Source: Nitrospirota bacterium (GTDB lineage: Bacteria; Nitrospirota; Nitrospiria; SBBL01; JAADHI01). From it: 64,000 bases of DNA. A program made the position numbers and the translations under genes. The notes below the pieces were generated by a model. It did no database searches. It was not told the DNA's origin and saw only the letters and a program-made list of their open reading frames with translations. Shown in pieces: positions 20,597-58,419 of the stretch (the stretch's first letter is position 1; each line of letters opens with the position of its first letter). The stretch lies in contig JAJDBT010000081.1 in NCBI GenBank assembly GCA_029261215.1, forward strand, positions 1 to 64,000, given 5' to 3'.

Positions 20597-22315
20597 TTAA
20601 AACAAAAAATAGCGTTGCGCCATCGCTAAAATTTCAGCCGGTTCACATTTTAAAATCACCCCGTCGGCCTTGACTTCATAGGTGTCCGGGTTGACTTCCA
20701 TTCGGGGCAGTGCGGCGTTTAAGACCATGTTGCTTTTGCCGATGTTGCGGCAGTTTTTGACGGCGGCCAGTTTCTTGCGTAGGTGAAATGTTTCCCGGAT
20801 GTTCGCGTCGAGGGCGGCCTGTGAAACAAAGGTGAGCGCGTTTTCAAAGGGCACCCCGCCAAAGGCCCCAAACATGGGTCGATAACGCACGGGCTGGGGC
20901 GTCGGGATCGAGGCATTGGGGTCGCCCATCGCCGCGCTGAGAATCATGCCGCCTTTGATCACCAGTTCGGGTTTTACGCCAAAAAAGGCGGGTTTCCACA
21001 ATACGAGATCCGCGAGTTTTCCGACTTCGATCGACCCGACTTCGTGCGAAATCCCGTGGGCGATGGCCGGATTGATCGTATATTTTGCGATATAACGCCG
21101 GGCGCGCAGATTGTCATTTTCACCACTTTCGTCCGAAAGCCGCCCGCGCTGTTTCAGCATCTTGTCTGCCGTTTGCCAGGTTCGGATGATGACTTCCCCC
21201 ACCCGGCCCATCGCCTGTGAATCGGAAGCCATAATCGAAAAGGCGCCGATGTCGTGCAGGATGTCTTCCGCAGCAATCGTCTCCGGCCGAATCCGGGAAT
21301 CCGCAAAGGCCACGTCTTCCGGGAGCGAAGGATTTAAGTGATGGCAGACCATGAGCATGTCGAGATGTTCATCAATGGTGTTGATGGTGAAAGGCCGTGT
21401 CGGGTTGGTGGAGCCTGGCAGTACATTTGCTTCGCCGCAGAGCTTGATGATGTCGGGCGCATGGCCGCCGCCCGCGCCTTCGGTGTGATAGGTGTGGATG
21501 GTGCGGCCTTTAAAGGCCTCAATTGTGGATTCGACAAAACCGGCTTCATTGAGCGTGTCCGTGTGAATGGCGACTTGCACATCAAAGCGGTCGGCGACGG
21601 TGAGCGCGGTGTCGATGGTCGCCGGTGTGCTGCCCCAATCCTCATGCAGTTTCAGCCCCAGCGCGCCCGCGAGGATTTGTTCATCCAGCGCCGCCTCACT
21701 TGCACTGTTGCCCTTGCCTAAAAAACCGAGGTTGATCGGAAAACCGTCGGCGGCCTGTAACATTTTCCCGATATTCCAGACGCCGGGTGTACAGGTGGTG
21801 GCGTTGGTGCCCGTGGCCGGGCCGGTGCCGCCGCCGATCATGGTCGTGATGCCGGAAGTAATGGCCTCCTCGATTTGCTGAGGACAGATAAAATGAATGT
21901 GGTTGTCGATGCCGCCTGCGGTGAGAATCAAGCCTTCCCCGGCAATCGCTTCCGTGCCTGCGCCGACGATCATGCCTTCGGTGATGCCATTCATAATGTC
22001 GGGATTGCCTGATTTCCCGATGCCGCTGATGCGGCCATTGCGTATGCCGATGTCCGCTTTAAACACGCCGCTGTGATCGAGTACGAGGGCATTGGTGATG
22101 AGGAGGTCGAGAATGCCGTCGGCTGATGTGCCGTGTGTGGCTTGTCCCATGCCATCGCGTAAAACCTTGCCGCCGCCGAATTTGCTTTCGTCTCCGTAGT
22201 GGGTGAAATCTTTTTCGACTTCAATGATGAGATCGGTATCGGCGAGGCGCACGCGGTCGCCGGTGGTGGGGCCGAACATGTCGGCATAGGCCCGGCGTGT
22301 TATTTTTAAACTCAT
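20597..22315 (-). CDS. ureC: Urease alpha subunit UreC
   Basis: The protein has 572 residues, a normal length. Active-site residues are all present: His139 and His141 (DNHIHF), Lys222 that becomes carbamylated (LKLHEDWG), His251, His277, Asp365 (MASDSQAMG), and the mobile-flap Cys324/His325 (VCHHLNPS). It hydrolyses urea to ammonia and carbamate at a di-nickel centre in the cytoplasm. The start overlaps the ureB stop (ATGA) with GGAGG before it. The enzyme should be active, given nickel. Confidence 0.98.
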
Positions 22316-49508: not shown

Positions 49509-49616
49509 TGACAATGCTTTTTCCTCGCAGGCACGTGTGAGTGTTTTTCTGAATCTCTCGTTTATCTAAGTCTTATCGCCTAAAACAGATTGAGGCACAG
49601 GGGAAGTTTCTTGATT

Positions 49617-50684
49617 ATGCGATATCGTAATATGGAGAAATACCTCTTTTTAGCAGGGGCCTTGTTTTTGTTTGTTGTTTTTTTGCCTGGGTGTGCCTCT
49701 GCAACAAAAAAAGAGAAAATTCAATTTGGAGCGTGGGTGACCTATTGGGATTTTGAGGGGGGGATGTCCTTTGCCCAAAAAGAGGAACCGCTTTTGCGAG
49801 ATATTTATTTTTTTGCGGTCGCCTTGAATCCGGAAGGAAGGCCCTTCCTGGTGAAGACTGATCGGCCCTCTAAAAAAAGTATTGCTCAAATCCGTTCATT
49901 GAATCGTAAGCCATGGATGACGGTGGTGAATGATGTCCATTCTCAGGATGGGTCGTACCTGCTTAAAGATGCTGATGTCATTCATATTATGCTTAAAGAT
50001 CCTGAAAAACGGAACACTCATCGTAAAGAGATTGTTCGCTTGGCAGTGAGTGAAGGATTTCTGGGTGTGGACATTGATTATGAAAATCTACTGGCTGAGG
50101 ATAAGGACCTCTTTACGTTGTTTATCCGGGAGCTTTCTGAAGATTTAAAAAAGGAAGCCATTCAACTATCAGTGACGGTGCAGCCGAAAAAAGGCCCTTC
50201 CCGCGCGGTAGGCCCCGGCGCGGCGGATTGGGCTGAGCTGTGTAGAACGGTCGATCGACTCCAAATCATGCTCTACAACCTGCATAACGGAAAAACAGAC
50301 CCTGGTCCGATGGCAACCTTAACCTGGATTGAGCAGGTTTGGCGTTATGCACAAAAAGAATGTGGGGCGGAGAAGCTTGTCCCTATTTTAAAGGTGAGTG
50401 GCATGTTGTGGGGGCCTGAGGGAGTGAAGGGGATTCATTTTGAGGAGGCGATGCTTCTGGCACAGGAACATCGTTCCGGGATTCAGAGAAATCCGGATGG
50501 GCTGTCTCCTTATTTTCAGCACTCATCAGGGGAGAAGCAGCATACGGTTTATTTTGAGGATGCTAGAAGTTTGGGAGAAAAAGTCTCCCTATTGGAAAGC
50601 CTTGGCTGCCGTCGGCTTCTTTTCTGGAGTCTGGGCAAACAAGACCCCGCTTTATTTTCCGAGTTACAATCACTTCAGTTTTAG
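49617..50684 (+). CDS. GH18-like lipoprotein
   Basis: The protein has 355 residues from the ATG at 49617. A TTG at 49590 is possible and an ATG at 49632 also. A signal with lipobox LPGC (Cys26) makes it a lipoprotein. The body is a TIM barrel of the GH18 type with the catalytic DxDxE motif as DIDYE (152-156, Glu156), preceded by FLGV. VTYWDFEGG and LQIMLYNLHN are the typical strands. GH18-fold enzymes cleave beta-1,4-N-acetylglucosamine polymers. It converges on the exopolysaccharide operon with overlapping stop codons (50681-50684), suggesting a trimming hydrolase for that polymer, which is inference. Confidence 0.82.
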   Translation: MRYRNMEKYLFLAGALFLFVVFLPGCASATKKEKIQFGAWVTYWDFEGGMSFAQKEEPLLRDIYFFAVALNPEGRPFLVKTDRPSKKSIAQIRSLNRKPWMTVVNDVHSQDGSYLLKDADVIHIMLKDPEKRNTHRKEIVRLAVSEGFLGVDIDYENLLAEDKDLFTLFIRELSEDLKKEAIQLSVTVQPKKGPSRAVGPGAADWAELCRTVDRLQIMLYNLHNGKTDPGPMATLTWIEQVWRYAQKECGAEKLVPILKVSGMLWGPEGVKGIHFEEAMLLAQEHRSGIQRNPDGLSPYFQHSSGEKQHTVYFEDARSLGEKVSLLESLGCRRLLFWSLGKQDPALFSELQSLQF

Positions 50685-53600
50685 AAACGGTATTGCAATA
50701 AAGCTTCGAGCATTTCACGTGAATACCCTGGGGAACGAGAGAAACTGGCTTGTAGATGGGTGTTGAAGTGGTCAGCCCAGGTTTTTTTGAGCAAGATTCT
50801 CCCCTGGCTGATCCATCGTGAACCATGTATTCGGTCACTGGCCCATCCCAGACCACTTTCCGCCTCCATCTCCCAGCGTGGGTTCCACGAGTGTCGATAA
50901 TGGAGGGTTCCTTCCGTTTCGTAGAGTCCTTCAGGGGTGTAATAACGGTTTGATTGAAATTGTGTATCTCGAAATGCGAGGCGCGCGCCCATTTGCCAGT
51001 TCGGCCAGCGTGACAGACGGTGTTTGATTCGGAGACCGAAGTCGGTGCGTGTGTTGTGATCGTCGTAATCGAGATAGGCGAAGGAAAGCTGCCCATTCCA
51101 CTGGGGGGGCAGCTGAAAGGAAGCAGAGCTTCTGAAGTGGTGTGCCTGTAAATCGGCTTCATGGGCTTGCAGGGTTTCGATGTCTTCATAGGACCAGTTC
51201 AGTCTGAGGGTATGCAGTCCCGTTCCATAACGTGCGCCGAGCCAGATGTTTTGGCTGCCAGACCCTCTTTCCCTTTGGCGCTGTCGAAACTGACTGTCTA
51301 AAACAAGTCCTTTTTGCGCAAACCACTGAGCGCCGACACTCAGCTCCTGAACCCCTAAATTTTCAAAACCTCTTTCACGAAAATGAGTGTGGCCTGCCTC
51401 ACCCCAAAGATGAATGTTGTTTTCCAGGGGGTACAAAAAACGCATGGCTTGCCAGTGGCGGAGGCGTTCACCAGACTCCGGGGAAAATCCGGCACGCGCC
51501 TGAAGTTGAGGCTGCGTTTTCCAAGCCATTTTTTCCATGAGCTGCTTTGTTTTTTTGTCAGGAATGGTCTCATTGTTCAAAACGAACTGGAGGTGTTTTC
51601 TGGCTTCGGGGTATTGAAATTGATGATAAGCAATTGCAGCGAGATAGTACTGGGTATCTTCTTCTAATAAAGGGGCTTGTCTGCCTAATTCCGAGAACAC
51701 TTCACCTGCTGCCGCATATTCTCCACTCCAGAAGTAGGACTGTCCCAGTCGAATACGGGACAGGTTTTGTGGATGTTGTCGGACAAGACGCTGGACAAGT
51801 TGCTCTCCACTCCAGTCTGAAGCAACACTGTTACGACGAAGGGTTAACGGGGCGTTTAGCCCTGTCTTTAAAATGTTGAAGCCACTTTGATCCTGAATAA
51901 ATCCAAAACGATAATAACGTTTTAAAAGCACGTCGTTTAAACGTATCGCCTCAGGCATGTTTCCCAAGCTGCCTTGGCCGGCATCCGAAAAAGGAAAGGC
52001 GTACCCGATAATCTTGTGATTTAATCCTTCCTTGCCCAAAATCGATCTGCTTTGAAGATAATCCTGTTCGAGCCGAATGCGATACTCTTCATCTGTTTCC
52101 AGTCGGTTTTTCTCTGCGAGCCATTTTTTGTTTGTTAGAAAAGTCCCTTGTTGTCCATCTGCATCGATTTGAATCGGGTCATGTGCAAGATGACCGTGAC
52201 TTTGCATTTCCCAACGACCTGTTTTCTCATAGAAACGAATCGTCGGCCAATCTGAGAAAAAAGGGCCGTTCTTCACCATTTTAAAGGTGGGAACAAACAT
52301 TGTGGCTTTCATCTGATGGTTTTTTAAGACAGGATCACCCAATTTCATCGCATCAAGGCGTGCATCATCAAAGGTAATAAGAATAGGTTTTTTTGGAAAA
52401 GGTTTTTTATTGTCGATCATGTCAGCCAATTCATTGACTGTAATACTCTGGTAGCCTTGATTTTTGAGGGCGGTTAATTGTTCGTCAAATCGTGTGACAG
52501 AAAGAAGGGTACTTCGAGGGTTTTCACTTAAACCATGATAGAGGAGAATGGGTAAATAAATGGATTCTTCTTTCGGGAAAGCAATCTCCTTGATGTCGGT
52601 TTGAGAGGCCTGAAGCTGCCCCATCGTGGCCTGTATTTGTCCACGTTGCAGTCGCATTTCGTAGTCATTAAAAAAGTCAGATCCTCGTTTTTCAAGCAGA
52701 TGGATTGCTTCAGGAAATATTTTTTCGGAGACGAGGGTTTCATATAACCCAATAAAAGCGTCTTTGTGATGCGGGTAGGTTTTTAAAAGGCCTTGATAGA
52801 TTGGATGGGCTTTTTCGTAATGCCTGTCGAAGCGATAGGCATTTGCCAGATTCAGGAGTATATCCTGATTGTTTGGGTGATGTTTTTGGGCCTCTGTCAT
52901 GAGCGTGATATTTTGAGAGAAGTCTTCAGTTTTTCGATAGATTTTACTAACTTCAAGCCAGTAAGACGGCTCTTCCGGGAAATATTGAATTAAGACCCGG
53001 TACCATCGAAGCGCTTCTTTATGATCCTCCTGTATTGTGGCATCTTGTGCCAGAAAGAGAATCAGGTCTTTTTGGGGGCCGTGGAGCGAGAGCATCCGCT
53101 TTGCCTCAAGCAGTGAGTGTGTGTGTTCTCCTGTTTCGTGCAGAGCGCGAACATAATAATATCGTGCTCTGGGGACATTTGAGCCAAGCGCCAGCACCTT
53201 TTTCCACTGTATTTTTGCCTGCTTAAAATCCCCATATTGAATTAAAATCTCTCCCCAAAAAGACTGAATGGGAAGGTGGTCGGGGTAAGTCTGGGCAAGA
53301 TGCTTAGCTTCCTGTTTTGACTTGAGGTATTGCTGGTCCCAAAATCGTGCTTTTGCCAGGGTCAGCTGTAAATCGGGCTGCTCGGGGGAAAGCCGAAGAC
53401 CTTCTTCCGAGGTTTGTATGGCTTTAGAATAATGCTTGGTCTTGAGATAGAGCCTCGTAAGCAGTTGATAAGGTGCAGGATGTTCGGGATGAAAATTTCG
53501 GTAGGCCAGCCACAGTTGTTCTGTTTGATTCCAGGCCGCTTTGCGCCAATAGATCCATCCGAGGTCTCTTAATGCCAGTTCATTTTCAGGTTCAAGTAAG

Positions 53601-54859
53601 AGGATTTCATTGTAGGCTGTGATGGCTTCATCCGTTTTTTCTGCTTGTGTCGCTTCTCTGGCCTGAACGGAATAGATTTTGATCAGGGCCTGGGTGATCC
53701 CTTTTGGCTTCCTGCCTGTTTCGAGTCTTTTTTTTAAAAAATGAAGTCCTTCATCGACATGATCGTATTGGACGAAGAGTGTGTGAAGGCGAGCTGCCCA
53801 GAGGTCTTCCTGATCTGTTTTTTCAAGAAGCGATGAAAGGAAAGCAAGAGCTTTGTCTGGATTGTTCTGTCGAAAGGCGAGTTCTCCCAGGCGGTAAAGG
53901 ATGATGCCTTGATCTTGTCCCTGCGCCCAGGCGCTTTGGTAATGATTCCGGGCCTTTTCATCGTTTCCCAGATCAAAATAGGCCTCGGCGAGATAGTGGT
54001 GAATGACTTCGGGATTGGCGGACAGGGGGAGCGCGATTTTCCAATGTTCGAGTGCGAGCCGGATTTCCCCTGCTTTGCGGAGAGCCCATCCCAGATTGAC
54101 ATGGTACTGCCCCTGCGTCGGGTGCCAGAAAATTGCATCAACATAGAAGGCCTGGGCGGCTGGATAGTCTTCTCTTTTGTAGGCCTGGTCGCCTTGCTGC
54201 GCGAATAACCTTGCGATCTGGGGACGCAGAACGGGTGCTGTTTTTTTTGAAACAGAGATTCTTTTTTTTAGGAAGGCGATGGCTTTCTCTGTTTGATTTT
54301 GTTTTTCGTAATGCGTCATCAGGCGAAGTGTCGCTTGAGTCTCATCCGGCGTATCTCTGAAGACCACGTCGTAGAGCAATGCCGCATCCTTCCATTGCCC
54401 CAATGCTTCATAGGCCGCAGCCAGCGGGAAGGAGATATCGGGTTGTTTTGGATTTATGCGAAGACTTTTTTTAAATTGTTGTACCGCTTTTTCCCAGGAT
54501 TTCGAGTCAAGATGAATCATGCCAATCTGATTGAAGAGGGCAGGTTGTTTGGGGTCTATTTTTAAAAGGGTCTCCCAAATCGCAATCGCTTCTTGGTTTT
54601 GCCCCAATTTGTAATGTGCCCATCCCAGGTTTTCCCAGGCTTTGAGAAGGGCAGGGTCGGCTTGCGTGGCCTTTTTAAATGCCTCCAAAGCTTGTGTGTA
54701 GTTTTCCCGTTTGTAGAGGCTTGCGCCTAGGTCCAGTGCGTCTTGTCCCGGTGATTTTGCCCATGTAAAAGTGGAGGGAAGGAGGACTAAGAGCAGGATA
54801 AGGATCAGCCAGCAAACCAGGAAACTTCTTTTTTTATCTAAATATGAGAGTGCTGTCAT
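50681..54859 (-). CDS. TPR-deacetylase-beta-barrel fusion exporter (PgaA/PgaB-like)
   Basis: The protein has 1392 residues. A signal anchor (about 12-34) is followed by a long TPR superhelix (about 36-760). Residues 769-1010 are a NodB-type polysaccharide deacetylase with both metal motifs intact: TFDD (829-832) and SHGHLAH (His888, His893). A short TPR-like stretch (1035-1095) then leads into an outer-membrane barrel (about 1115-1392) with amphipathic strands and terminal Phe. PgaA of E. coli is TPR plus a 16-strand barrel; PgaB is a separate deacetylase. Here the two functions are in one chain. It overlaps the upstream gene by four bases. It should deacetylate and export the polymer made by the GT2 protein. 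Confidence 0.85.
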   Translation of the reverse strand: MTALSYLDKKRSFLVCWLILILLLVLLPSTFTWAKSPGQDALDLGASLYKRENYTQALEAFKKATQADPALLKAWENLGWAHYKLGQNQEAIAIWETLLKIDPKQPALFNQIGMIHLDSKSWEKAVQQFKKSLRINPKQPDISFPLAAAYEALGQWKDAALLYDVVFRDTPDETQATLRLMTHYEKQNQTEKAIAFLKKRISVSKKTAPVLRPQIARLFAQQGDQAYKREDYPAAQAFYVDAIFWHPTQGQYHVNLGWALRKAGEIRLALEHWKIALPLSANPEVIHHYLAEAYFDLGNDEKARNHYQSAWAQGQDQGIILYRLGELAFRQNNPDKALAFLSSLLEKTDQEDLWAARLHTLFVQYDHVDEGLHFLKKRLETGRKPKGITQALIKIYSVQAREATQAEKTDEAITAYNEILLLEPENELALRDLGWIYWRKAAWNQTEQLWLAYRNFHPEHPAPYQLLTRLYLKTKHYSKAIQTSEEGLRLSPEQPDLQLTLAKARFWDQQYLKSKQEAKHLAQTYPDHLPIQSFWGEILIQYGDFKQAKIQWKKVLALGSNVPRARYYYVRALHETGEHTHSLLEAKRMLSLHGPQKDLILFLAQDATIQEDHKEALRWYRVLIQYFPEEPSYWLEVSKIYRKTEDFSQNITLMTEAQKHHPNNQDILLNLANAYRFDRHYEKAHPIYQGLLKTYPHHKDAFIGLYETLVSEKIFPEAIHLLEKRGSDFFNDYEMRLQRGQIQATMGQLQASQTDIKEIAFPKEESIYLPILLYHGLSENPRSTLLSVTRFDEQLTALKNQGYQSITVNELADMIDNKKPFPKKPILITFDDARLDAMKLGDPVLKNHQMKATMFVPTFKMVKNGPFFSDWPTIRFYEKTGRWEMQSHGHLAHDPIQIDADGQQGTFLTNKKWLAEKNRLETDEEYRIRLEQDYLQSRSILGKEGLNHKIIGYAFPFSDAGQGSLGNMPEAIRLNDVLLKRYYRFGFIQDQSGFNILKTGLNAPLTLRRNSVASDWSGEQLVQRLVRQHPQNLSRIRLGQSYFWSGEYAAAGEVFSELGRQAPLLEEDTQYYLAAIAYHQFQYPEARKHLQFVLNNETIPDKKTKQLMEKMAWKTQPQLQARAGFSPESGERLRHWQAMRFLYPLENNIHLWGEAGHTHFRERGFENLGVQELSVGAQWFAQKGLVLDSQFRQRQRERGSGSQNIWLGARYGTGLHTLRLNWSYEDIETLQAHEADLQAHHFRSSASFQLPPQWNGQLSFAYLDYDDHNTRTDFGLRIKHRLSRWPNWQMGARLAFRDTQFQSNRYYTPEGLYETEGTLHYRHSWNPRWEMEAESGLGWASDRIHGSRWISQGRILLKKTWADHFNTHLQASFSRSPGYSREMLEALLQYRF

Positions 54860-56736
54860 TGATGTGTCAAAGTCAGGATAACTGACGTGCTTGAAGGAGT
54901 AATCTGAAATTGTGGACTGATGTCTTTCCGGTGCGCTTGCAGTGTTTCCAGGGCTTCAACCCATTGTCTTTGTTGCAGCGTATCGAGAAGGCTGAAATCA
55001 AAATAAAGTCCTTTCCAGGGCGTTTTTTCGAAGGCGTTTAAAATATCGTTCAGAAGGGAGGGCATGGAGCTTATCTGACTGTGAGGGGCAGGTGCGTTTA
55101 CTTGACGGATATCGGGTGTCGACTTAATGCGGACAAGGGGCAGGATTTCCCATGCCTGTCGCCGGGAAAGAATCAAAAACAGGTCGTGATCCATCGGGAG
55201 CGTATTGAGTGTGTCCCCATTAATCTCAATCCAAAAAGGAAGTACAGTCCCGATATCTCTGGAATCTTTGACCAGGCTTTGCACGGTTTCAGGGCTCGGA
55301 TAAGCTTGGACCACTTGCGTATTGGCCCGGAAAGCGGCAAAGGTTTGATTGGCGAGATGCAGGCGAGCGGGTTGTTCTGTATTCCAGGCCACCCACTGGA
55401 GTGCGCCACGCCACGGAATGGCGAGATAGTAGGGGTGCTCTCCGAGGGGCTTATGATCCCATTCGACCGAAAGGCCCTGTCCACGTTTTATAATCCGAAG
55501 GTGGTGCCAGGCTTCGTGATCCATTTTCTCTGGAAAAGGGATGCGGGCCAGCGTTTCCATGAGTCCCTCTTCCGAAAAATGCTGAAGGTAGAGGGCGCTT
55601 AGATCACCCCCTATGCGCCATTTTTTAAGCGTGTCCGGAGCGGTTTGCATGAGCCAGAATTGCCCACTGTGCATTTTTAAGTCGGTTTCCAAGACCCAAT
55701 CCTGTGTCCAATGACTTTGAGTTAATATGATCTGGGCACTGGGTGACCCTTCAAGAATGGTTGTATTTGCTTCAGTGCGAACTGCGCCTCCAAGCGGAAG
55801 CCATTGTGCCGCTTCGGCTTTTTCGATGTTTCCCGCATGTACTTCGGAAGGAGGATTCATCGCGGCATGCAGGTGTTGAATCAGTTGTTCTCCTGTAATA
55901 GAAGGGGATACGCGCAAACGCCGGAGATGGTAAGGGTCTGAAGAAGATGGATTGCTCCCAATCGGATCATCAACAAAACCGAGAAGATACGAGGATTTTA
56001 ATGTTTTTCTCGTGAGACGACTCTCTTCTGTGGCTTCTTCTATTTTTGAGTGGATGGGGGTGGAAAGCGCGTAGGCAGTGACACGATGGTTTTTTAGGTG
56101 CTGGTCAATCAATAATCTGCTTTTTTCATAGTCACTGCCAATGCTAAATAAGAGAGAATCTTTTTGGTCTGTTTCGAGAGAGAGCAGGTCAGTCCCTTGG
56201 TGGCCGTATGAAGCGATTTCCCAGATCCCGCTGTTGACCATGCGTTGTAAGCGATCCCAATAGAGAAAGTGTGTGTCGCGGTTTTCCTGACGGATGGTTT
56301 TGAGAAACAATGCGGCCCGCCATTTTTCTTGCCGCAATACTGGATCTACCACTGAAAAGGTGTCCAGATAACCGGTATCGAAGGTAATCAGAACCGGTTT
56401 GGAGGGCAGGGCTTTGCCATTGTATAAAAAATCGGAAAGAGCGCTGAGGTTGATTGAATGAAAACCATCGTTACGCAAGGCTTGCAGATGTTCCCGAAAT
56501 CGGGCCCGATCCACGTGTGTGCCATCGGGACTTTTTTCAACGACATGTTCATAGCTCAGCACTGCGATTGCTGTGGTTTGGGTTTCTGTGTTTGCCGCAT
56601 AGAGGCCTTCCGGGATGATTGTCCTGTTCATCCAAAGCGACCCGCCCGATATTGAAACAAGAAGGAAGAGCACAAAGAAAAGCCATGCCAGTCGATCCCT
56701 TCGAAAAGACCGAACCACTGTAGAGGGTTGTTCCAT
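54856..56736 (-). CDS. Deacetylase-like protein with lost active site (PgaB position)
   Basis: The protein has 626 residues. One membrane anchor (about 16-36) is followed by a NodB-like domain (about 55-290) whose motifs are degenerate. TFDDA/G is TFDTG (118-122, the second Asp is Thr121), and SHxHxxH is SYGHQGT (Tyr177, Thr182), so the metal ligands are gone. A LamG/concanavalin-like beta-sandwich follows (about 325-470; WVLETDLKMHSGQFWLM). A TIM-barrel-like C-terminal part ends the protein (FWIEINGD, KGLYFDFSLLDTL), resembling the hydrolase-like domain of PgaB. It probably binds polymer rather than cleaving it. The start abuts the GT2 stop. Confidence 0.8.
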   Translation of the reverse strand: MEQPSTVVRSFRRDRLAWLFFVLFLLVSISGGSLWMNRTIIPEGLYAANTETQTTAIAVLSYEHVVEKSPDGTHVDRARFREHLQALRNDGFHSINLSALSDFLYNGKALPSKPVLITFDTGYLDTFSVVDPVLRQEKWRAALFLKTIRQENRDTHFLYWDRLQRMVNSGIWEIASYGHQGTDLLSLETDQKDSLLFSIGSDYEKSRLLIDQHLKNHRVTAYALSTPIHSKIEEATEESRLTRKTLKSSYLLGFVDDPIGSNPSSSDPYHLRRLRVSPSITGEQLIQHLHAAMNPPSEVHAGNIEKAEAAQWLPLGGAVRTEANTTILEGSPSAQIILTQSHWTQDWVLETDLKMHSGQFWLMQTAPDTLKKWRIGGDLSALYLQHFSEEGLMETLARIPFPEKMDHEAWHHLRIIKRGQGLSVEWDHKPLGEHPYYLAIPWRGALQWVAWNTEQPARLHLANQTFAAFRANTQVVQAYPSPETVQSLVKDSRDIGTVLPFWIEINGDTLNTLPMDHDLFLILSRRQAWEILPLVRIKSTPDIRQVNAPAPHSQISSMPSLLNDILNAFEKTPWKGLYFDFSLLDTLQQRQWVEALETLQAHRKDISPQFQITPSSTSVILTLTHQ

Positions 56737-58419
56737 TTATCGTGTTCCCCAATGGTTTTTATTGACTGTTAGAAGGGCGTAGTATGTTTGCCAAACAAGG
56801 ATAAACATATAGAAAAAAGCGAAGAGGACGCCGTAGATCCAGAATCGATTGGCATACTGGATGAGATAGAACAAGCCGTACAGCAAGGCCATGAGAAATA
56901 CGCCATAAACATAAAGAAAGGAGAGATCCCCATAGCCAAATACGGGAAAGATCAGTGCGTTCAGAAGAATGATCGGGGAAAAAATGGGGAAAACAACCCC
57001 AAGGTAAAAGAAAATCGCCGCAATCGGGTTTCGCATCCACATAAATTTACTTGCAATATAACTTTCCCGAATCCAGGACTTTTTCCATCGGACCTGTTGT
57101 TTGAAAAATTGCCGGAATTTTTCAGGAACCACCGTGGCACAGACTGCCTCGGTGTCATAAATTACCCGAAAGCGTTTGAGCATGTAATTTGTCAGGCTTC
57201 GGTCATCTCCAAAGGTCGCATCGCTTCCAAGAAAACGCTGGCCCAGCCAGGTATCGAGCACTTCCATGACATAGCTTCTTCGGTAGGCTGCAAGGCACCC
57301 CGAGCAGCAGGAAACCACAGAAAAGACTGATTCTGCTGCCTTCACAATACGAAAGGCAATAAAATATCGAACCTCCTGCATTTTTGTGAGCAGGTTTTTG
57401 TGTGCATTTTCAACAACAGCATGACCACAAACGGCTCCGACGGAAGGATCAGAAAACCCTCGAACCAATTTACGAACGGCATCCTTGCGGAGAAAACTGT
57501 CAGAATCAACGTAGATGAGAATCTCTCCACTGGCCTGTCGTGCACCTGCGGCCATCCCATGACGTTTTCCCAGGTTTTTCTCAAAGCGAATCAATTTCAG
57601 TGTGGGGTAGCGTTTCTGGGCGCGTTCCATTTCCTGATAGGTTCTGTCTGTGGAGCCATCGTCTACTGAAATGACTTCCATGAGATCGCTGGGGTAATCG
57701 GACTTGTAGATACAGTCAAGGGTTTGCCGGATAGAGGCTTCTTCATTTTTACAAGCGATTACAATGGTGACGAGAGGGCGATATCCCTTCTCTTTAGGGG
57801 GTTTATAAAAGTAAGCAAGAATAAACCGTGAGAGGATGTAGGCCGAAATCGTGAAGCTGTAGATATTGATCAGAGGTTGGTACCAAAAGTAGTAGATATT
57901 ATTACTTTTAAGATAGAGCACATTGATTATGACCAAGATAAAAGAGAGCAAGGCCACCCATGAGATCGATTTATTCACAAGGTGGCGGTAGGTTTGTTCT
58001 CTGTCATCTGAAAAAGAAAATGCATAATCATAAGAGGTGTTTGCTTGTCTTTCCGAACTGGCAAGTTTCCTGAGCACGCTTCCCCACACCCATTGCCCGA
58101 ATCGCATTTTTTTGGGAAGAGACTTGTCGTCCTGCGAAGAAGGGGTCAGTTTGATTCTAATTTTCATGCCAATTTTTAAAGGTTCTTGTACCTGAAGAAT
58201 CCCTCCACCCAGGCTCAAGTCGGTTAATGTGCCTTCCAGCGGATCTGCGTTTGGGTCGGTCTTTTCTGGGCGATACAGGCAGGATAATGTCTTTGAAGAA
58301 CGTGCATGGATTCTTTGTGTCCGTAAGGTCCCTTGTGTCGCTACTTTATGGTTTTGTCCTAAACCCTGGGTTTTTATTGATCCCAGGTTTTTTTTTCGTA
58401 ATGATTGAGCATTGATCAT
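56737..58419 (-). CDS. PilZ-GT2 processive exopolysaccharide synthase
   Basis: The protein has 560 residues. An N-terminal PilZ domain (about 30-145) has the c-di-GMP motifs RxxxR (Arg36-Arg40) and DxSxxG (Asp67-Gly72). Two membrane helices (151-170, 183-203) precede a GT2 domain with DDGS (253-256), DSD (305-307), GDDR (404-407) and QQVRW (441-445), the pattern of NodC, PgaC and hyaluronan synthase. Four further helices follow. It should polymerise an N-acetylglucosamine-type or related polymer across the inner membrane, activated by c-di-GMP. The CCSGCLAAYRR block is nearer to chitin/hyaluronan synthases than to cellulose synthase. Confidence 0.92.
   Translation of the reverse strand: MINAQSLRKKNLGSIKTQGLGQNHKVATQGTLRTQRIHARSSKTLSCLYRPEKTDPNADPLEGTLTDLSLGGGILQVQEPLKIGMKIRIKLTPSSQDDKSLPKKMRFGQWVWGSVLRKLASSERQANTSYDYAFSFSDDREQTYRHLVNKSISWVALLSFILVIINVLYLKSNNIYYFWYQPLINIYSFTISAYILSRFILAYFYKPPKEKGYRPLVTIVIACKNEEASIRQTLDCIYKSDYPSDLMEVISVDDGSTDRTYQEMERAQKRYPTLKLIRFEKNLGKRHGMAAGARQASGEILIYVDSDSFLRKDAVRKLVRGFSDPSVGAVCGHAVVENAHKNLLTKMQEVRYFIAFRIVKAAESVFSVVSCCSGCLAAYRRSYVMEVLDTWLGQRFLGSDATFGDDRSLTNYMLKRFRVIYDTEAVCATVVPEKFRQFFKQQVRWKKSWIRESYIASKFMWMRNPIAAIFFYLGVVFPIFSPIILLNALIFPVFGYGDLSFLYVYGVFLMALLYGLFYLIQYANRFWIYGVLFAFFYMFILVWQTYYALLTVNKNHWGTR

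What the first reader, a model, noticed from the sequence alone, without database searches (positions are those of the whole stretch)
49617..58419. Rearranged Pga-like exopolysaccharide system: export barrel fused to the active deacetylase, PgaB-position protein inactive
Seen: the 1392-residue gene (50681-54859) joins TPRs, a deacetylase with intact TFDD and HxxxxH motifs, and a terminal outer-membrane barrel. The adjacent 626-residue gene has the same kind of domain with the metal ligands lost (D to T, H to Y, H to T). The polymerase has PilZ. Known: in E. coli PgaA (TPR-barrel) and PgaB (deacetylase-hydrolase) are separate. Inference: catalysis moved into the exporter and the old enzyme became a polymer-binding subunit. 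I do not know of a described system with this split.
Basis: partly seen in the sequence, partly recalled or inferred. Interest (0 to 1): 0.88.

Follow-up and report, generated by a model that had tools for sequence, protein, structure and literature searches.

The report
Sugar-polymer exporter with built-in deacetylase
A bacterial gene set apparently makes and secretes a chitin-like sugar polymer; the enzyme that trims its acetyl groups is fused to the outer-membrane exporter, its catalytically dead twin is kept as a separate protein, and I found no description of this layout.

Summary
The 1392-aa protein is one frame joining a long TPR array, a PgaB-type CE4 deacetylase domain with all five active-site residues, and a PgaA-type outer-membrane barrel. 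The fusion is not an assembly error: the same architecture recurs in three other genomes (41-45% identity), beside a protein like the 626-aa one whose CE4 metal site is lost in every copy. A GH18 gene, convergent on the operon, is conserved too. The 'rearranged Pga' reading is only partly right. The synthase groups with NodC and hyaluronan synthases, not PgaC; the dead subunit is not shown to be a decayed PgaB; and one relative carries both this system and a complete pgaABCD. A more distant relative keeps the layout, but both CE4 domains there are degenerate and a separate CE4 gene lies alongside. A Paenibacillus plasmid carries a barrel-less version (PilZ-synthase, degenerate CE4, GH18, separate intact CE4). 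Best explanation: a c-di-GMP-responsive, synthase-dependent exopolysaccharide system, probably for a partly deacetylated GlcNAc polymer, with the deacetylase covalently placed where PgaB docks on PgaA and a pseudo-deacetylase as polymer-handling subunit. Polymer identity and all activities are untested. New variant of a known kind.

The parts
50681..54859 (-). Exporter-deacetylase fusion, 1392 aa: signal sequence, TPR array, CE4 deacetylase, short TPR-like segment, outer-membrane barrel
52595..54742 (-). TPR superhelix (about residues 40-755)
   Evidence: Pfam TPR families
51815..52552 (-). CE4 (PgaB-type) deacetylase domain, residues about 770-1015; H775, D831, D832, H888, H893 all kept
50684..51547 (-). 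PgaA-type outer-membrane beta-barrel, residues 1105-1392, ending YRF
54856..56736 (-). 626-aa periplasmic subunit anchored by an N-terminal TM helix: pseudo-CE4 domain, probable LamG-like domain, unassigned C-terminus
55837..56574 (-). Degenerate CE4 domain (E63, D120, T121, Y177, T182 in place of H, D, D, H, H)
55327..55764 (-). Possible laminin-G/ConA-like domain (weak; Pfam E 0.12 in one orthologue, 0.068 in the Paenibacillus homologue)
56737..58419 (-). Membrane GT2 synthase of the hyaluronan synthase/NodC/chitin synthase type (GDDR, QQxRW, C-terminal WGTR) with N-terminal PilZ-like domain
57985..58314 (-). PilZ-like domain (RIHAR and DLSLGG motifs; sub-threshold in Pfam)
49590..50684 (+). 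GH18 hydrolase with N-terminal signal/possible lipobox, convergent with the operon and conserved with it; catalytic DIDYE kept

Best explanation
A synthase-dependent exopolysaccharide secretion system. The GT2 synthase polymerises and translocates an aminosugar polymer (most likely poly-GlcNAc, with a beta-1,4 chitin-like backbone likelier than the beta-1,6 of PNAG), gated by c-di-GMP through the PilZ domain. The membrane-anchored 626-aa protein, whose CE4 domain has lost its metal site but probably keeps the fold, receives or holds the polymer in the periplasm. The TPR superhelix guides it to the outer membrane, where the fused CE4 domain partly deacetylates it just before the barrel exports it. 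The GH18 protein (probably a lipoprotein) trims or clears polymer. Shown by sequence: gene set, domain order, kept and lost active-site residues, conservation. Inferred: product, c-di-GMP control, polymer binding by the dead subunit, order of events.
For: All four genes are conserved together in G014, G015 and G028; with the window these are all the carriers found among 270 genomes of the class. Fused CE4 site kept 4/4; partner metal site lost 4/4, and degenerate in Paenibacillus and L060. Barrel homologous to PgaA barrels. Synthase nearest to HAS structures, NodC 195 bits versus PgaC 137, outside PgaC in the tree (100/100). GH18 nearest solved relatives are YdhD/YaaH-type glycosylases and a probable chitinase. 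In PNAG the outer-membrane-proximal TPRs of PgaA bind the PgaB deacetylase domain and raise its activity (PMC9384988); PelB TPRs 9-14 do the same for PelA (PMC12022489). The fusion puts the CE4 domain at that membrane-proximal end. A barrel-less counterpart in Paenibacillus supports the synthase, degenerate CE4 and GH18 as a module.
Against: No usable structural model. The distant homologue in G304 has degenerate CE4 domains in both proteins, so catalysis by the fused domain is not needed for the architecture to persist. HAS/NodC-type similarity does not fix sugar or linkage. PilZ is sub-threshold in the window copy and absent from the G028 ORF. Only four full carriers and two distant relatives are known.
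Confidence: 0.62

Rival explanations
1. A divergent PNAG (Pga) system in which PgaA and the PgaB deacetylase domain fused; product is beta-1,6 poly-GlcNAc.
For: Barrel resembles PgaA; both CE4 domains resemble PgaB; functional logic matches PgaA-PgaB coupling.
Against: Synthase outside the PgaC clade and nearest to HAS/NodC types; no PgaD; GH18 instead of the PgaB hydrolase domain; G014 carries a full pgaABCD as well.
Confidence: 0.2
2. Neither CE4 domain deacetylates; both are structural polymer-guiding domains, and any modification is done elsewhere.
For: In L060 both CE4 domains have lost active-site residues while the architecture persists.
Against: All five active-site residues and their neighbourhoods are invariant in the four full carriers, which a structural domain would not need; L060 has a separate CE4 gene with an intact FDDGY motif beside it.
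Confidence: 0.12
3. A hyaluronan- or heteropolymer-type polysaccharide (aminosugar alternating with another sugar).
For: Best structural matches of the synthase are hyaluronan synthases.
Against: Deacetylase and GH18 point to GlcNAc; a dedicated nucleotide-sugar dehydrogenase gene next to the synthase (as in the Lactococcus HAS-like locus) was not seen among the ORFs read around the operon, though this was not searched specifically.
Confidence: 0.1
4. The long ORF is an assembly or frameshift artefact joining separate genes.
For: None found; it was a reasonable prior for a 125-contig assembly.
Against: Same uninterrupted 1380-1446-aa architecture in three independent genomes and a 1300-aa homologue in a fourth.
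Confidence: 0.01

Closest known systems
PgaABCD, poly-beta-1,6-GlcNAc (PNAG) system
   Same: TPR-barrel exporter, CE4 deacetylase, GT2 synthase, deacetylation coupled to export
   Different: Deacetylase fused into the exporter; synthase not of the PgaC clade and carrying a PilZ-like domain; no PgaD; GH18 instead of the PgaB hydrolase domain; extra pseudo-CE4 subunit
Pel system (PelA-PelB)
   Same: Long TPR array (about 19) plus barrel; deacetylase acts at the TPRs (PMC12022489)
   Different: PelA is a separate protein of another esterase family (CE21) with its own hydrolase domain; here the enzyme is covalent
BcsZC fusion of Zymomonas cellulose operons (PMC7112194)
   Same: A periplasmic processing enzyme fused to the outer-membrane pore
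   Different: The fused enzyme there is a hydrolase; here a deacetylase, with a dead relative kept beside it
NodB-NodC (chitooligosaccharide deacetylase and synthase)
   Same: Synthase of the same broad GT2 type paired with a CE4 deacetylase
   Different: NodC makes short oligomers handled by NodIJ (from general knowledge); no TPR-barrel, no pseudo-CE4, no PilZ
Paenibacillus cellulositrophicus plasmid locus NZ_CP045296 (L097)
   Same: PilZ-GT2 (42% identity), TM-degenerate CE4-LamG-like protein, GH18; separate CE4 with intact motif nearby
   Different: Gram-positive; no TPR-barrel; function undescribed as far as I found

Membership tests
PNAG (Pga) system | PgaC-type synthase | tested here: not met
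   Separate from seven PgaC sequences with 100/100 support; NodC model scores higher than PgaC and both are far below cut-off
PNAG (Pga) system | PgaA TPR-barrel exporter | tested here: met
   Architecture matches; barrel similarity well above permuted controls, though below Pfam and TIGR03939 cut-offs
PNAG (Pga) system | PgaB: CE4 deacetylase plus C-terminal glycoside hydrolase domain | tested here: not met
   CE4 is in the exporter; the separate protein has a dead CE4 and no PgaB hydrolase match
PNAG (Pga) system | PgaD | tested here: not met
   No PgaD-like small membrane gene adjacent to the operon; present in canonical loci L040-L042 and L046
PNAG (Pga) system | Product is beta-1,6-GlcNAc | not testable with these tools
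   Needs chemical analysis
CE4 deacetylases (fused domain) | Catalytic Asp, metal-binding Asp and two His, plus His of the YH motif | tested here: met
   H775, D831, D832, H888, H893, invariant in the four full carriers
CE4 deacetylases (626-aa protein) | Same active-site residues | tested here: not met
   Four of five lost in the window copy; none of the three metal positions keeps its residue in any of the four full carriers
HAS/NodC/chitin synthase-type GT2 | (G)(D/E)DR and QQxRW motifs, membrane helices | tested here: met
   GDDR, QQVRW, several membrane segments, alignment to HAS structures through the C-terminal WGTR
HAS/NodC/chitin synthase-type GT2 | Sugar and linkage made | not testable with these tools
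   Needs enzymology
PilZ c-di-GMP receptors | RxxxR and (D/N)xSxxG in a PilZ fold | tested here: inconclusive
   Both motifs present; Pfam below cut-off in window copy, above it in L060 and Paenibacillus homologues; missing in G028
GH18 glycosidases | DxDxE catalytic motif | tested here: met
   Pfam 76.4 bits; DIDYE, conserved in orthologues

The most novel reading that the evidence does not exclude
An undescribed class of exopolysaccharide systems, in diderms and monoderms, that makes a chitosan-like (beta-1,4) polymer with a PilZ-gated HAS/NodC-type synthase, always keeps a dedicated pseudo-deacetylase subunit, and places the active deacetylase either in a separate gene or in the exporter itself.
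Probability: 0.35. Interest if true: 0.78.

Novelty: new variant of a known kind. Interest (0 to 1): 0.63.

Why it matters
In PNAG and Pel, deacetylation and export are coupled by a contact between separate proteins; here it is covalent and paired with a natural dead relative, which makes the coupling directly testable. If the product is beta-1,4, it would be a dedicated bacterial secretion route for a chitosan-like polymer. The Paenibacillus locus suggests that a monoderm module and a diderm exporter version share a core, as has been shown for Pel and argued for PNAG/Ica.

Tried and rejected
AlphaFold2 from single sequences for residues 755-1392 and for the 626-aa protein: pLDDT 32 and 36, so no fold search was run. 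PDB search with the barrel profile: nothing. Idea that the C-terminus of the 626-aa protein is a GH18 remnant: hhalign score 22.9 against a permutation maximum of 20.4, not convincing. GT2 relatives in G022, G248, G339, G387 and G018 have no such neighbours in the stretches read. Whether the fused CE4 and the partner CE4 arose by duplication within this system or before it: unresolved, deep forks weak. Plasmid searches with the 626-aa protein and with the CE4-barrel gave only general deacetylases/PgaB. Literature: eight searches; nothing describing a TPR-deacetylase-barrel fusion or this gene set; only open-access papers are held.

Full report
Observation. Three genes on the minus strand (50681-58419) are tightly packed: the first two overlap by 4 nt and the last two abut. 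The 1392-aa product has a TPR array, a CE4 domain and a C-terminal barrel; the 626-aa product has an N-terminal membrane helix and one CE4 domain; the 560-aa product is a GT2 synthase. Inside the reported span the plus strand carries a GH18 gene (49590-50684) that overlaps the end of the exporter gene by 4 nt.

Barrel. Pfam's PgaA_barrel hits below cut-off (E=0.0072 for the whole protein, 0.00039 for the barrel alone). A profile of five barrels against eight canonical PgaA barrels scores 44.8, against a mean of 14.9, s.d. 1.7 and maximum 21.1 for 40 column permutations and 22.6 for the reversed profile; the aligned stretches lie at equivalent positions (126-214 against 137-228). The window barrel has 18 predicted amphipathic strands, the same as the E. 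coli-plasmid PgaA (shuffles 11.7 +/- 2.1), and ends in YRF, as PgaA mostly ends in RF. Structure prediction without an alignment failed, so the barrel rests on sequence.

Active sites. Aligned with PgaB, the fused CE4 keeps His775, Asp831, Asp832, His888 and His893; all four full carriers keep the five. The 626-aa protein has Glu63, Asp120, Thr121, Tyr177, Thr182. In its orthologues the three metal positions are H/N/N, H/N/N and R/N/P, so none keeps its residue.

Recurrence. Among 270 genomes of the class only four carry the 626-aa family: the window, G014 and G015 (same order, another family) and G028 (another order). In all four the order is synthase, dead CE4, fusion, convergent GH18; the fusions are 41-45% identical to the window's over nearly full length. 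Closer relatives of the window's genus and family lack it, and G001, G005 and G006 carry canonical pga operons instead. G014 carries both systems. The window's own genome gave five CE4 matches, none in a canonical pga setting, though it is a 97%-complete draft.

A distant relative, G304 (another class, L060), has a synthase with an above-threshold PilZ, a homologue of the 626-aa protein and a 1300-aa TPR-CE4-barrel homologue, but both CE4 domains there are degenerate. A separate CE4 gene with an intact FDDGY motif and a GH18 homologue lie beside it. A Paenibacillus plasmid (L097) has, in order, a separate tandem CE4 protein, a PilZ-GT2 (42% identical to the window synthase), a membrane-anchored degenerate CE4-LamG-like protein and a GH18, with no barrel. 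The dead subunit therefore goes with the synthase whether or not an exporter fusion exists. The site that carries an intact CE4 motif differs between loci.

Is it Pga? The synthase falls outside seven PgaC sequences with full support, matches NodC better than PgaC (195 versus 137 bits), and its best solved relatives are hyaluronan synthases, aligned through the GDDR and QQxRW motifs to the terminal WGTR. No PgaD or PgaB hydrolase domain is present. The fused CE4 is closer to the window and G014 partner CE4 domains (115-139 bits) than to PgaB (at most 58 bits). The exporter is Pga-like; the system is not a Pga system by its defining synthase.

Mechanism. In PNAG the outer-membrane-proximal TPRs of PgaA bind the deacetylase domain of PgaB and raise its activity (PMC9384988). 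In Pel, PelB TPRs 9-14 bind PelA and raise deacetylation (PMC12022489). The fusion inserts the CE4 domain at the barrel-proximal end of the TPR array, with a short TPR-like segment between it and the barrel, so it makes that contact permanent. The dead CE4, tethered at the inner membrane, is best placed to take the polymer from the synthase; this is inference. The sugar is probably GlcNAc because of the synthase type, deacetylase and GH18 together; beta-1,4 is favoured over beta-1,6 by synthase and GH18 kinship only.

Known systems. The nearest precedent for an enzyme fused to the pore is BcsZC of Zymomonas (PMC7112194); the passages read there also mention PgaB fusions to glycosyltransferases, none to the porin. 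No paper found describes the present arrangement, within an open-access library.

Verdict. Observation confirmed; interpretation partly supported; new variant of synthase-dependent exopolysaccharide secretion.

Noticed in passing
window 21865-22162 (+): Rfam 5_ureB_sRNA (91 bits) lies antisense to the ORF at 20597-22315 (-), which I take to be the urease alpha subunit; probably reflects conserved urease coding sequence rather than a real antisense RNA, but untested.
   Followed up: no
L046 (G014:C2:205000-221000) and L037: One genome carries both a canonical pgaABCD operon and the new four-gene system, so the two are not simple replacements.
   Followed up: partly
L060 15592-16668 (-) and 5735-7531 (-): Distant relative has a stand-alone CE4 gene with intact FDDGY motif and a second, larger GH18-Fn3 protein flanking the operon whose own two CE4 domains are degenerate.
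   Followed up: partly
L097 4586-12216: Paenibacillus plasmid locus with tandem CE4, PilZ-GT2, degenerate CE4-LamG-like protein and GH18: a monoderm counterpart that seems undescribed.
   Followed up: partly
L098 7831-9180, L101 8879-10255, L099 9146-10519: Solitary GT2 synthases, mostly with a GEDR-type motif, related to HAS/NodC types and without obvious partner genes, occur in other genomes of the phylum.
   Followed up: no
L039 6400-7160: G028 synthase ORF lacks the N-terminal PilZ region and none is readable upstream in any frame, so PilZ control may be lost there.
   Followed up: partly
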